From NCBI RefSeq assembly GCF_024362205.1, contig NZ_CP101462.1, forward strand, positions 648,501-712,500: a stretch of DNA of 64,000 bases, in the 5' to 3' direction. The notes beneath the pieces were generated by a model, which made no database searches, was not told where the DNA came from, and saw only the letters and a list, made by a program, of their open reading frames with translations. This DNA comes from Exiguobacterium aurantiacum (GTDB lineage Bacteria; Bacillota; Bacilli; Exiguobacteriales; Exiguobacteriaceae). Within the stretch, counting starts at the first letter, position 1. The number at the start of each line of letters is the position of its first letter. The translations under genes and the position numbers were made by a program. Below are positions 37,081 through 43,448 of this stretch, piece by piece.

Positions 37081-37338
37081 ATGGGAAAGCAAAATCAATA
37101 TGAGAGAAAATTGATTAAGCATGGCGATTCTGTTTGCGTTTCTATTCCAATGACTGTGTTGCGAAAATTGAAGTTAGATGTGGGTGACGAGGTCTCGATA
37201 TTGACGATAGACAAGGGCATCTTGATTCGACCGCTTGAGGATACAGTACAAACGGATATCGATTCAAAATTTTCTGATGACATGGAAAAAATAATCGAGC
37301 AGCACAACGATACGTTCAAAGGATTAGTGGAACGTTAA
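37081..37338 (+). CDS. AbrB/MazE-type antitoxin-like protein without a toxin partner
   Basis: The 85-aa product has an N-terminal swapped-hairpin DNA-binding domain (KLIKHGDSVCVSIPMTVLRKL, LDVGDEVSILTIDKGILIRPL split here) and an acidic C-terminal helix (EKIIEQHNDTFKGLVER). That helix resembles toxin-binding tails of antitoxins paired with Doc-type toxins. TAATG at the stop would be the expected start of a coupled toxin gene, but that frame closes after 19 codons. GC is lower than the neighbours. It is probably an acquired remnant of a toxin-antitoxin pair. Confidence 0.7.
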   Translation: MGKQNQYERKLIKHGDSVCVSIPMTVLRKLKLDVGDEVSILTIDKGILIRPLEDTVQTDIDSKFSDDMEKIIEQHNDTFKGLVER

Positions 37339-37464: not shown

Positions 37465-38349
37465 TTACGACGAACGCATCGAATCCCCATACCCTCCGGT
37501 CAAGCGGTGCGTGAGCCGGTGATACCAGTAGCGGAGACGTAAGCGGTATACATATAGTCTTGACGTGTTTGGCAAGACGACGTTGTCGATATAATCGGCG
37601 AACATGGCGCGGAACATATGGTCCTCGCTATCGTCATACGTCGCGCTCCACATGCCGTGCTCTTCGACCTCGAGCAACATCGCAATCGTCTCGTCATCGA
37701 GCTGATGATTATCTTCCGGTAATCGTTTGACGAGCATCTCGACCCGATGGCTACAGATGGACGCATAGAGCGAATGGGCGCGCGGGTTGCGCGGGTTCGC
37801 GTTCAAGTACCCGATGGCCACCTTGAGGAGCTCATCGTTCATCTCGAGCGGAATCTCATCGAACGCTTGGAAGAATTCGAGCAGCATCGGCACGGTCTCT
37901 TCGTTGAACCCGGCGAGCCGGACGTAATGCATCAAGTGGAGTCCGGCCTCCCCGTAAAACTTGCGGTTGAAGTAATGGACGGCAATGGCGCGTTGGACCA
38001 TCGGCACGTCCGGATAGCGTTCGACGGCACGAAGGAAATGCTGCTCGGCCTCGAACGTGAAATTCGTGTCGTCGCTCAAGAGGCCATGAAGGCAGTGAAT
38101 CATATAATGGTCGCCTTTTTCGCCCGCTGCTTCGAGCACGGCGCGGGCCCGGCCGAACTCGCCTTCGCGGATGAGCGGATACGCCCGCATCGCCGGGAAG
38201 AACGGGTCCTCGGGAAAATTCGTCTCGCCGCGGACGATGAGCGACTCGATGGACTCAGCGTTATAATCGTCAATCAGTTCTTCAAGGAGCATCATCTCAA
38301 GGAAGGTGCGTTGAAAATCTGGATGGTGTAAATCGATGGTGTGTTTCAT
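37465..38349 (-). CDS. Uncharacterised helical (TPR-like) protein
   Basis: The 294-aa soluble protein is almost wholly alpha-helical and resembles TPR-type solenoids (AEQHFLRAVERYPDVPMVQRAIAVHYF, split as repeat-like units near 100-135). The ending is basic and aromatic (YRLRLRYWYHRLTHRL). The ATG at 38349 follows GGGAGGGA. I do not recognise a named family. It is monocistronic and divergent from a small DUF3221-like gene. A scaffold or protein-binding role is suggested by fold only. Confidence 0.6.
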   Translation of the reverse strand: MKHTIDLHHPDFQRTFLEMMLLEELIDDYNAESIESLIVRGETNFPEDPFFPAMRAYPLIREGEFGRARAVLEAAGEKGDHYMIHCLHGLLSDDTNFTFEAEQHFLRAVERYPDVPMVQRAIAVHYFNRKFYGEAGLHLMHYVRLAGFNEETVPMLLEFFQAFDEIPLEMNDELLKVAIGYLNANPRNPRAHSLYASICSHRVEMLVKRLPEDNHQLDDETIAMLLEVEEHGMWSATYDDSEDHMFRAMFADYIDNVVLPNTSRLYVYRLRLRYWYHRLTHRLTGGYGDSMRSS

Positions 38350-38473
38350 GAGGGTCCCTCCCAAGTTCATGAGTGTGGCTTCATTATACCGAGCAATCGG
38401 ACGGACGAGTAGATTAATTTCAAAAAATGGGAAAAGAAAAGGGAAGGATTTCCGAGGAAATGGAGGAATGGAG

Positions 38474-38701
38474 ATGGTCACGTTCACAGGATATATCGTC
38501 GAGCTCGAGCCAACGCGAATCCGGGTCGCACCGAACTTGGATGCCGAGCCGTTCGATGGGATCGTATTTCACTGGGAGGAGCCGCTGCGAGAGGACGAGA
38601 CACCGCTCGCCGTCGGTCAACAGGTGCGCGTCGAGCATGATGAGAAGATGACACGTTCGCTACCGCCCCAGGCGACGGCGCATCGAATCGATGTGCTATG
38701 A
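38474..38701 (+). CDS. Small DUF3221-like protein
   Basis: A 75-aa beta-rich protein (VTFTGYIVELEPTRIRVAP ... VGQQVRVEH). Its ending SLPPQATAHRI resembles the S-Y-P-x-Q-A element of DUF3221/YobA proteins. Unlike exported members it has no signal peptide. The ATG at 38474 is 8 bp after GGAGG. A micro-membrane-protein gene follows 19 bp later. Function is unknown. Confidence 0.6.
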   Translation: MVTFTGYIVELEPTRIRVAPNLDAEPFDGIVFHWEEPLREDETPLAVGQQVRVEHDEKMTRSLPPQATAHRIDVL

Positions 38702-38886: not shown

Positions 38887-38917
38887 AAAGCACGTCATCA
38901 TTCAGATGGCGTGCTTT
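38887..38917. terminator. Terminator shared by convergent genes
   Basis: AAAGCACGtCATC and GATGgCGTGCTTT form a 13-bp stem with one mismatch around ATTCA, ending TTCTT. It overlaps the end of the minus-strand gene. Confidence 0.75.
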
Positions 38918-40160
38918 CTTCGTCTTCCACCGGCTCGTCCGGGACATCCTCGATCGCGTCAGTTGCGTCCGGCTTCTCCTCGGTGACGGGCGGTGGCGCC
39001 GGTTTGTCGTTCTTGTCTTGTTTCGGTTTAGTGTCGGGCTGATCTGCCTTTGGTTTTGTGTCCGGTTTGTCTTGCTTCTTTACCGGGGCCGGTGCTTCCG
39101 CTTCTTTCTCCTGAGCGGCTGGCTTCTCCGGCTCGACGGGTTCTGCCGGTTCGGTCACAGGGACGTCAGGCTCGGTCGGTTGCTCCGTGACGGGAGGCGC
39201 CTCGGGTTCTTCAGCAGGTTGTTCCGGTTCGGCTGGAGTCTCTTCCTCGACCGGTGCCGGTTCTTCCGCTGGAGGCTCATTTGGTTCAGGTGTTTCTGGC
39301 GCCGCCTCGGTTTCCGGTTCTGGTTCCGGTGTCGGTTCCGGTTCCGGAGCAGGAGCAGGTTCTGCCGGGTCCTCTCGTTTTGGGACCGGTGTGATCGGTG
39401 CGACCGGTGCGAGTTCAGCGGCCGGCGCACTGCGTTTCGTCGTCGGAGGTGGAGCCGGCGTGTCCGACTTAAGGAACGACAGCACGTCTTGTTCGAACAA
39501 GGCGACCGGGAGCGTCTTCGTCACCAAGTGGATGCCGAGCACCCGTCCATTGGCCGTGACGATTGGGCTGCCGACGGCGCGGTTCGGTAAATCGAATTCG
39601 CGGCGATAGCTGTCTTCTTCGAACGTGAGCGTTCCTTCGATCTGCTCATCCGGTGCGAGCGTCAACACCGATTCGTCCGGTCCGACAATCGCGTGGCTGA
39701 ACGAGAACGGGGACGTCTTCACTTTCTCGATGCGGATGACGGCGATGGCGTCGGTCCGCCCGACGACGGTGCCGTTCATCGTCTCATCGCCTTGTTTCAA
39801 GGTGACGCGAGTGATGCCGGCGACGTTATGGGCCGCCGTTAACACGTCTTGCGGGCTAATCAAAAAACCGGAGCCCGTTCCGATGGTATATAAGCTGTCT
39901 TGCAACGTCTCGAGGTCAACGGTGGTGGCACCGTCGGCCGAGACCGTGTCTTCGGTGATATTCAAGTCGACTTTGTTGGCGAGCGATTTACTCGAGCGCG
40001 GAGTGTCGGTGAGATAGGCGTTCGTCAAAAAAGAGACGAACGCGATGAGTGCGATGACGATGGGGACAGCAATCCATTTTAAGCGACGTGGGCGATGGCC
40101 ACACGTCGGACAAACAGTGGTTTTCGAGCGGGTCTTCGCTCCGCAGCGTGGACAAGTCAC
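38898..40160 (-). CDS. Zinc-ribbon, membrane-anchored trypsin-fold protein with Pro/Glu-rich tail; catalytic Ser missing
   Basis: The 420-aa product starts at a GTG after GAAGGTG. An N-terminal zinc ribbon (C3-x2-C6, C17-x2-C20) precedes a membrane helix (about 28-48). A trypsin-like domain (about 85-230) keeps His111 (TAAHNV) and Asp137 (GRTDAIAV). The serine motif normally GxSGGP or GxSGSP reads RAVGSP, with Val196 at the nucleophile position. Residues about 235-400 are Pro/Glu repeats, then Lys/Asp-rich, suited to crossing the wall. It is probably a non-proteolytic binding or sensing protein. Confidence 0.8.
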   Translation of the reverse strand: MTCPRCGAKTRSKTTVCPTCGHRPRRLKWIAVPIVIALIAFVSFLTNAYLTDTPRSSKSLANKVDLNITEDTVSADGATTVDLETLQDSLYTIGTGSGFLISPQDVLTAAHNVAGITRVTLKQGDETMNGTVVGRTDAIAVIRIEKVKTSPFSFSHAIVGPDESVLTLAPDEQIEGTLTFEEDSYRREFDLPNRAVGSPIVTANGRVLGIHLVTKTLPVALFEQDVLSFLKSDTPAPPPTTKRSAPAAELAPVAPITPVPKREDPAEPAPAPEPEPTPEPEPETEAAPETPEPNEPPAEEPAPVEEETPAEPEQPAEEPEAPPVTEQPTEPDVPVTEPAEPVEPEKPAAQEKEAEAPAPVKKQDKPDTKPKADQPDTKPKQDKNDKPAPPPVTEEKPDATDAIEDVPDEPVEDEESTPSE

Positions 40161-40323
40161 GGGATGACACCTTCCTTCATAAACATAGATGATATGCCTA
40201 TTCCTCATATGAAGCAGGGGTAAACAAATATTTGTCGGGGGCATATACGAAAACAGGTAGGTGGACTGAACTTCTTCAAAACGGGAAAGAACTAATGTAA
40301 CGTTTCAGAAAGGGGAAACCGAC

Positions 40324-42668: not shown

Positions 42669-43448
42669 ATGGCATTATCAACTGAACTAGGTAAAATCAA
42701 GCAACTCCACAATGCGGAGGCAGGAGTACTTAGTCTCTATTTGAGCACGAAACCGAGCGAACGCAACAAATGGGAGATCCACTTAAAAAACGAGTTGCGC
42801 CGGCTCGAGCAAGAAGTCGAAGCGAATGGGGACGAATCGAAACTGAAAGCGTTCAAACAGCTCCGGGAACGGGCCGAACACGAGATATTAAGCAATGAGC
42901 ATAAACTGTTGCGCAGCATCGTCTTGTTCGCGGAAGGGAACGATGGACTGTTCGAATTGCATTTCCTTCAACTCGATGTCGACAACGAGTTTCATTATGG
43001 GGACAAACCGAATTTGGACCAGATTGAGAGACTTGACGCCGAGTTCCCGAACACCGGGATCTTGCTCGCTCAACTCGACAGCATCACGGCGTATGACACC
43101 CGACTTGGTGAAATCGAGGACGTCGTTGTATTCGACCTTGATTTAGACACCGACCAGTGGAGACGCTATCAAGGGCGAGGTGCGGGTGGTAAGGCTTCAT
43201 CGAGCAGCCAAGTGGATCAATTCGACAGCCGGAAAGAAAACCAAATCCGTCAATTTTATCGGGACATTGCGGGAGAGATTCGCACGCTCCATAAACATCA
43301 CAAGTGGAGTGAGGTCGTCATCATCGGGCAAGATCGGAGTGCGAACTTGTTAAAAGATGAACTCGGTCTCGACGTCGAGCGGGTCGTGAACCGGAACTTG
43401 GGACACGCCGAGGAAGAAGAAGTATTGCGGCGGGCGTTTGAAGCATGA
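42669..43448 (+). CDS. VLRF1-family aeRF1-type release factor homologue
   Basis: The 259-aa soluble protein resembles bacterial VLRF1 proteins, relatives of archaeal/eukaryal release factor 1: GVLSLYLSTKPSERN near the start, a charged helical middle, and a C-terminal alpha/beta part (EVVIIGQDRSANLLKDEL). The family is proposed to act at stalled ribosomes; activity is not established here. AAGGAGGAG precedes the ATG. It follows a permease gene by 15 bp and is closed by a terminator. Confidence 0.82.
   Translation: MALSTELGKIKQLHNAEAGVLSLYLSTKPSERNKWEIHLKNELRRLEQEVEANGDESKLKAFKQLRERAEHEILSNEHKLLRSIVLFAEGNDGLFELHFLQLDVDNEFHYGDKPNLDQIERLDAEFPNTGILLAQLDSITAYDTRLGEIEDVVVFDLDLDTDQWRRYQGRGAGGKASSSSQVDQFDSRKENQIRQFYRDIAGEIRTLHKHHKWSEVVIIGQDRSANLLKDELGLDVERVVNRNLGHAEEEEVLRRAFEA

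What the first reader, a model, noticed from the sequence alone, without database searches (positions are those of the whole stretch)
38898..40160. Trypsin-fold membrane protein with Val in place of the catalytic Ser
Seen: His111 and Asp137 fit the catalytic triad but the serine loop reads RAVGSP, so the nucleophile is lost. A cytoplasmic zinc ribbon, one membrane helix and about 165 residues of Pro/Glu/Lys-rich tail complete the protein. Inference: a pseudoprotease sensing or binding wall or peptide material and signalling through the zinc ribbon.
Basis: partly seen in the sequence, partly recalled or inferred. Interest (0 to 1): 0.5.

Follow-up and report, generated by a model that had tools for sequence, protein, structure and literature searches.

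The report
Dead-protease membrane protein of Exiguobacterium
A stress-type promoter appears to drive a membrane protein whose outer domain has the fold of a protein-cutting enzyme but has lost its cutting residues, and its sequence is kept under selection, so it probably binds or senses something at the cell wall instead of cutting.

Summary
The gene is real: minus strand, 40160..38898, 420 aa, from an Exiguobacterium-like genome. It encodes a zinc ribbon, one membrane helix, a trypsin/HtrA-fold domain and a 187-residue Pro/Glu tail. The loss goes further: His111 is His in 7 of 19, and Asp137 is out of register with the catalytic Asp. Two segments of active relatives are deleted. The fold is retained (model pLDDT 84.5; best match MarP, Z 21.3) and dN/dS is 0.05-0.11 in the barrels: a maintained pseudoprotease, not a decaying gene. 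Its layout is shared with uncharacterised triad-bearing zinc-ribbon/TM/trypsin proteins of other Bacilli; 4 of 8 relatives scanned carry the TcaA NTF2-like domain. A SigB-like promoter (GTTTAY-N14-AGGWAT) lies at the same place in 19 of 19, but the pattern is not enriched genome-wide. The best reading is a TcaA-like envelope protein with a binding pseudoprotease domain, as in RsgI9. The ligand and signalling through the zinc ribbon are inference. New variant of a known kind.

The parts
38898..40160 (-). whole gene, 420 aa, GTG start at 40160, stop 38898-38900
   Evidence: GTG kept in 19 of 19 genomes, with a conserved ribosome-binding site block ahead of it
40200..40225 (-). SigB-like promoter GTTTAC-N14-AGGAAT (-35 at 40220-40225, -10 at 40200-40205)
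   Evidence: only match in the 64 kb window (expected 0.12; 11 of 100 shuffles had at least one); same site at -64 to -68 in 19 of 19 genomes, spacer always 14; not enriched genome-wide
40168..40178 (-). ribosome-binding site GAAGGAAGGTG
   Evidence: read; conserved block
40092..40160 (-). zinc ribbon, residues 1-23, C3 C6 C17 C20
   Evidence: Zn_ribbon_3 E 8e-4, below Pfam's cut-off; four Cys invariant in 19 of 19
40005..40085 (-). single membrane helix, residues about 26-52
   Evidence: hydropathy maximum 2.41, only stretch with windows over 1.6; helix 26-51 in the first, low-confidence model
39462..39887 (-). trypsin/HtrA-fold pseudoprotease domain, residues 92-233
   Evidence: Pfam Trypsin_2; AlphaFold2 model and fold search
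39828..39830 (-). His111, former catalytic His column (H 7, Y 1, S 11 of 19)
39747..39752 (-). Asp137-Ala138, just before IAV; the catalytic Asp column of active relatives is a gap here
39573..39575 (-). Val196, former nucleophile column (V 3, I 10, Y 6, S 0 of 19)
39567..39569 (-). Ser198, invariant, two residues past the nucleophile column
38901..39461 (-). Pro/Glu-rich tail, residues 234-420, ending in a conserved STPSE-like end
   Evidence: 147-215 residues long in the 19 genomes

Best explanation
A TcaA-like envelope protein in which an HtrA/S1C-type protease domain has become a binding domain. Shown by sequence and model: zinc ribbon on the N-terminal side of one membrane helix; an HtrA-fold domain without a usable triad, with two segments of the active relatives deleted; a long Pro/Glu tail; purifying selection; one conserved SigB-like promoter in front of the gene. 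Inferred: under general stress SigB raises its amount; the pseudoprotease domain, lying between membrane and wall, holds a ligand (wall polymer, peptide or partner protein) through a remodelled cleft with new invariant polar residues (N112, R135, R187, S198, H211); the tail, which if extended could cross the wall, anchors or positions it; occupancy changes a partner at the membrane, with the cytoplasmic zinc ribbon as its inner contact. The ligand and the signalling step are not shown.
For: 19 of 19 genomes of the genus have it and none has Ser in the nucleophile column. 30 of 30 loci fetched for related Bacilli proteins keep the His motif and GxSGG, and 17 of the 30 have the same zinc-ribbon start; 36 of 36 active rows in A4 have His, Asp and Ser. 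Model with pLDDT 84.5, best match MarP 3k6y Z 21.3, 2.5 A over 161 residues; RsgI9 S1C-NTF2 (7sjy) Z 19.8. dN/dS 0.05-0.11 in both barrels in three clades covering 17 of the 19 genomes. SigB-like site in 19 of 19, one and only one per locus in 19 flanking loci, 256 kb; SigB present (413.6 bits); GTTTAG-N13-GGGAAT ahead of the frame that I read as rsbV in the sigB operon. TcaA NTF2-like domain in 4 of 8 active relatives scanned. TcaA has an inside zinc finger and one membrane span and affects wall teichoic acid (PMC10328498, passages). The RsgI9 S1C domain is protease-like and binds cellulose (PMC12203970, passages).
Against: No ligand, partner or expression data. The SigB pattern is not enriched genome-wide (7 matches against 10 for the reversed control), and the -10 is AGGWAT, not the recalled GGGWAT. 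The good model needed active relatives in the alignment; with the 19 orthologues alone (residues 1-233) pLDDT was 40.4. The genus sits on a long branch (3.7 changes per column) apart from the relatives, so direct descent from the zinc-ribbon proteases rather than a parallel build is likely but not proven. The protein has no TcaA or NTF2 domain.
Confidence: 0.6

Rival explanations
1. A still active protease that uses another residue (Ser198 or another) as nucleophile.
For: Ser198 is invariant in 19 of 19; His111 is kept in 7 of 19, the window included.
Against: Ser198 lies two residues past the nucleophile column; His111 is Ser or Tyr in 12 of 19, and an Asp directly before IAV is present in 1 of 19, so no orthologue has a full triad; 8 residues between L212 and P218 that most active relatives have are deleted.
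Confidence: 0.04
2. A passive structural tether: the pseudoprotease is only a folded spacer or dimer module between membrane and wall-spanning tail, with no ligand and no signal.
For: A long Pro/Glu tail with a conserved end is kept in 19 of 19 genomes; the tail also shows constraint, dN/dS 0.10-0.15.
Against: Both barrels have a lower dN/dS than the tail in all three clades, though in the second clade barrel 1 only barely (0.105 against 0.108); the domain carries new invariant polar residues; a spacer would not need a zinc ribbon inside the cell.
Confidence: 0.2
3. A chaperone-like or pseudo-inhibitor role: it captures misfolded exported proteins or holds the true HtrA proteases of the same cell.
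For: The genome has two other Trypsin_2 proteins, HtrA-type with the full triad; gram-positive HtrA is described as both protease and chaperone (PMC12826053, title and start of abstract in the listing, passages).
Against: No PDZ domain; the region before P218 is shortened; the gene is not near either htrA.
Confidence: 0.13
4. A gene in decay: a former protease losing its function.
For: Triad residues differ between clades, as in stepwise loss.
Against: No stop inside the match in 19 of 19 genomes, dN/dS 0.05-0.11 in the barrels, conserved promoter block and gene order.
Confidence: 0.03

Closest known systems
Zinc-ribbon/TM/trypsin-like proteins of other Bacilli (unnamed; L061-L067, L091-L107)
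   Same: Same order of parts; 17 of 30 loci fetched have the zinc ribbon before the Trypsin_2 domain; some have acidic tails (L097, L103, L105), in place of this protein's Pro/Glu tail.
   Different: They keep His, Asp and GxSGG, have two segments that are deleted here, and 3 of the 6 zinc-ribbon ones scanned end in a TcaA NTF2-like domain.
Clostridium thermocellum RsgI9 (S1C-NTF2 ectodomain, PDB 7sjy)
   Same: Membrane protein with a protease-like S1C domain outside that binds a polysaccharide (PMC12203970, passages); fold match Z 19.8.
   Different: RsgI9 belongs to the RsgI anti-sigma factors; here there is a zinc ribbon and no RsgI domain. Whether the RsgI9 triad is lost was not seen in the sources held.
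TcaA of Staphylococcus aureus
   Same: Zinc finger inside, one membrane span, most of the protein outside (PMC10328498, passages).
   Different: No TcaA domain found here; TcaA is not known to carry a trypsin fold (recalled).
MarP (Rv3671c) of Mycobacterium tuberculosis, PDB 3k6y/3k6z/3lt3
   Same: Best sequence and fold match of the domain (E 4.6e-9 to 7.3e-9; Z 21.3).
   Different: MarP is a protease (3k6y is titled its active form); the NCBIfam score is 36.9 bits against a cut-off of 250.

Membership tests
Peptidase S1C / HtrA | two-barrel trypsin fold | tested here: met
   model pLDDT 84.5, Z 19.0-21.3 in the 50 rows shown; the alignment held active S1C rows
Peptidase S1C / HtrA | His-Asp-Ser triad | tested here: not met
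   Ser 0 of 19, His 7 of 19, Asp before IAV 1 of 19; Asp column a gap in 18 of 18 rows
Peptidase S1C / HtrA | C-terminal PDZ domain | tested here: not met
   no PDZ match at E up to 10
MarP family (NF033740) | score over the curated cut-off | tested here: not met
   36.9 of 250 bits
TcaA | N-terminal zinc ribbon and one membrane helix | tested here: met
   the zinc ribbon is below Pfam's cut-off but its four Cys are invariant
TcaA | TcaA extracellular domains | tested here: not met
   no TcaA domain at E up to 10
RsgI anti-sigma factors | RsgI N-terminal domain | tested here: not met
   no such Pfam match among the 16 listed; that Pfam holds an RsgI model is recalled
Zinc-ribbon/TM/trypsin proteins of Bacilli | zinc ribbon + TM + trypsin fold in this order | tested here: met
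Zinc-ribbon/TM/trypsin proteins of Bacilli | intact triad | tested here: not met
SigB regulon | SigB-type promoter | tested here: inconclusive
   conserved in 19 of 19, but the pattern is not enriched genome-wide and there are no expression data

The most novel reading that the evidence does not exclude
A stress-induced wall sensor built from a dead protease: the genus converted a membrane-anchored trypsin-like protease into a ligand-binding receptor. The nucleophile was lost before the 19 genomes parted; His drifted later in separate clades, while a new set of polar residues (N112, R135, R187, S198, H211) became invariant around the old cleft. The ligand signal passes through one helix to a cytoplasmic zinc ribbon.
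Probability: 0.25. Interest if true: 0.55.

Novelty: new variant of a known kind. Interest (0 to 1): 0.42.

Why it matters
Trypsin-fold pseudoproteases of bacteria look little described: the search held 3 papers, none about one by its listing, 10 of 216 papers were listed and one review was read in passages only, so this is not a claim of absence. The family gives a natural series of triad states in one genus and a set of triad-bearing relatives of the same layout in other Bacilli. It also links the trypsin fold to the TcaA type of envelope protein, which bears on wall teichoic acid and glycopeptide response. The ligand question is directly testable.

Tried and rejected
Rejected: an intact protease with Ser198 as nucleophile; pseudogene; artefact of frame or start. 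The 448-aa frame from ATG 40244 would run through the conserved promoter block; GTG 40160 is kept in 19 of 19, with a conserved ribosome-binding site block ahead of it. Also rejected: plasmid-borne relatives (no match in 72,556 plasmid records) and a copy in the sister genus (0 of 19 genomes at E up to 0.001).

Led nowhere: first AlphaFold2 job with the 19 orthologues alone (pLDDT 40.4). An ECF-type promoter TGAAAC-N-CGT ahead of the gene was matched in 4 of 19 (L001, L003-L005), with looser chance-like matches in L008 and L009. The genome-wide SigB pattern scan gave 7 matches against 10 for the reversed control, which does not support a regulon by itself; the promoter of the sigB operon has G at the sixth position and was excluded by that pattern. 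Catalytic geometry could not be measured, because model coordinates were not among the files of the Python box. The 2022 RsgI9 structure paper is not held. Searches on TcaA plus zinc ribbon (0 papers) and TcaA/NTF2-like/trypsin-like/zinc-ribbon (10 of 52 papers listed) showed no relevant paper.

Rows dropped: alignment A4 (54 rows) leaves out L011 (near copy of L010) and L112 (missed by my trimming script), so it holds 18 of 19 orthologues and 29 of the 30 loci; L068 and L113 in it are the same gene. One search compared 18 pseudo rows with 31 active rows (5 HtrA-type rows left out: L027, L028, L069, L071, L072). The dN/dS clades leave out L008 and L018. In one search my regular expressions missed the two HtrA rows and, in some rows, the Asp; one search counted the triad on A4 instead (36 of 36 active rows).

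Full report
WHAT IS THERE. The gene lies on the minus strand, GTG at 40160 to stop at 38898, 420 aa. The genome is Exiguobacterium-like: the 7 loci found in genome contigs are all titled Exiguobacterium, with 64-93% identity. The protein has a zinc ribbon (C3, C6, C17, C20, no other Cys), one hydrophobic helix at about 26-52 with a strongly positive N-terminal side (8 K/R, 0 D/E), a linker, a Trypsin_2 domain (E 2.3e-6, 28.8 bits over the cut-off of 27.6) and a 187-residue tail with 28% Pro and 21% Glu.

IS THE CATALYTIC SITE LOST? Orthologues were found in 19 of 19 genomes of the genus, one each, no stop inside, and in 0 of 19 genomes of the sister genus (none at E up to 0.1 either). In the 19, column 196 (nucleophile) is V 3, I 10, Y 6; column 111 is H 7, Y 1, S 11; column 138, the residue before IAV, is A 10, L 6, D 1, S 1, F 1; column 137 is D 11, N 4, and V, K, S, P once each. 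No genome has a triad. In alignment A4, 36 of 36 active rows have His, Asp and Ser in these columns, and the Asp column is a gap in 18 of 18 pseudo rows, so Asp137 is not in register. Gap placement there is the aligner's choice, but Asp137 cannot stand directly before IAV without treating Ala138 as an insertion. Against the active rows two segments are short: residues 179-184 are 6 here and 21-23 in 34 of 36 active rows (28 in the other 2), and residues 212-217 are 6 here and 14 in 29 of 36 (13-17 in the rest). The second is next to the strand that in trypsin-fold enzymes lines the substrate cleft (recalled).

WHERE IT COMES FROM. A profile of the 19 found weak matches in other Bacilli. Of 12 such loci read, 7 (L061-L067) have the same zinc ribbon/TM/trypsin layout with an intact serine motif and 5 lack the zinc ribbon. 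A second profile search over 398 genomes gave 30 loci. In 30 of 30 the His motif and GxSGG are present, and 17 of 30 have CxxC-N-CxxC at the N-terminus. These are the best-scoring loci, not all matches; the profile rings in 397 of 398 genomes, and most listed matches cover only its trypsin part. Of 8 scanned, 4 carry the TcaA NTF2-like domain PF22819 (L091, L094, L098, L115; the last has no zinc ribbon) and 3 (L097, L103, L105) have acidic tails instead. A tree of 54 rows sets the 18 pseudo rows apart on one long branch (100/100, length 3.7; its bootstrap had not quite settled). Since all 19 lack Ser while His is still present in 7, loss of Ser before loss of His is the simplest order (inference).

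FOLD. With 54 rows, 36 of them triad-bearing, residues 56-240 gave pLDDT 84.5 and pTM 0.82, with 117 of 185 residues at 90 or more. Foldseek and VIA-align rank MarP and HtrA-type structures first (MarP 3k6y Z 21.3, rmsd 2.5, 161 aligned). The RsgI9 S1C-NTF2 structure 7sjy is among them (Z 19.8, rmsd 2.6, 160 aligned).

SELECTION. Nei-Gojobori dN/dS, three clades (7, 4 and 6 genomes; L008 and L018 not used): barrel 1 0.093, 0.105, 0.053; barrel 2 0.088, 0.075, 0.062; linker 0.153, 0.078, 0.082; zinc ribbon plus helix 0.141, 0.116, 0.173; tail 0.150, 0.108, 0.103. The dead domain is the most constrained part or close to it. Several polar residues are invariant in 18 of 18 pseudo rows and rare or absent in 31 active rows: N112 (active V/A), R135 (I/Y/F), T167 (A), R187 (mostly I/M), S198 (G), H211 (N), D225 (mostly Q/L) and others. 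This fits a new function more than decay. That they lie around the old cleft is judged from sequence position, not from measured distances.

REGULATION. The region ahead of the gene differs between genomes, but one block is kept: GTTTA[CT]-N14-AGG[AT]AT at -64 to -68 in 19 of 19, with the spacer length constant and its letters varying. Upstream regions resampled by a first-order model match at a rate of 0.0008 each. The site is the only match in the window (expected 0.12, 11 of 100 shuffles with at least one) and the only one in each of 19 flanking loci totalling 256,062 bases (L026 and L074 are the same contig region, so these are 18 genomes besides the window's own). The genomes are related, so the 19 are not independent. 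The genome has SigB (413.6 bits over the cut-off of 315), and GTTTAG-N13-GGGAAT lies ahead of the frame two genes before sigB, which I read as rsbV (name by reading, not by a family search). Against: the strict pattern is not enriched over its reversed control in the genome (7 against 10). The SigB consensus GTTTAA-N12-14-GGGWAT is recalled. The promoter call is therefore probable, not proven.

NEIGHBOURS. SDR, the 340-aa minus-strand protein, DUF3221 and this gene keep their order in 18 of 18 other genomes; the AI-2E-type transporter is next door in only 6 of 18. In the window both neighbours are on the other strand, so the gene is probably its own transcription unit and gene order gives no partner.

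HOW IT PROBABLY WORKS. By layout it is a TcaA-like envelope protein: for TcaA a zinc finger inside, a single membrane span and most of the protein outside were predicted, and wall teichoic acid is released in the tcaA mutant (PMC10328498, passages). By domain it resembles RsgI9, whose protease-like S1C domain binds cellulose (PMC12203970, passages). I therefore favour a stress-induced envelope protein whose pseudoprotease binds a wall polymer, peptide or partner. Catalytic death is near certain (about 0.93); binding at the envelope is likely (about 0.6); signalling through the zinc ribbon is open (about 0.3). These odds are my judgement.

Noticed in passing
L061-L067, L091-L107: A set of Bacilli membrane proteins with zinc ribbon, TM, triad-bearing trypsin domain and, in some, a TcaA NTF2-like C-terminus; a TcaA/HtrA hybrid layout that no paper listed in my searches was seen to describe.
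   Followed up: partly
window 37081-37338: An orphan AbrB/MazE-like gene between the SDR gene and the 340-aa gene; matched in only 4 of 18 orthologous loci (L023, L024, L075, L078).
   Followed up: no
window 37465-38487 (-) and 38468-38701 (+): A 340-aa protein without a Pfam match and a DUF3221 protein lie beside the pseudoprotease gene in 18 of 18 other genomes; function unknown.
   Followed up: partly
L129, L134 (window's own genome): Two other matches to the SigB-type pattern lie 11 and 49 bases ahead of a frame that reads like an ABC-transporter ATPase and one that reads like a small membrane protein (names by reading only).
   Followed up: no
window 42669-43448: A bacterial archaeo-eukaryotic release factor-like protein (baeRF family 5, E 3.8e-32).
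   Followed up: no
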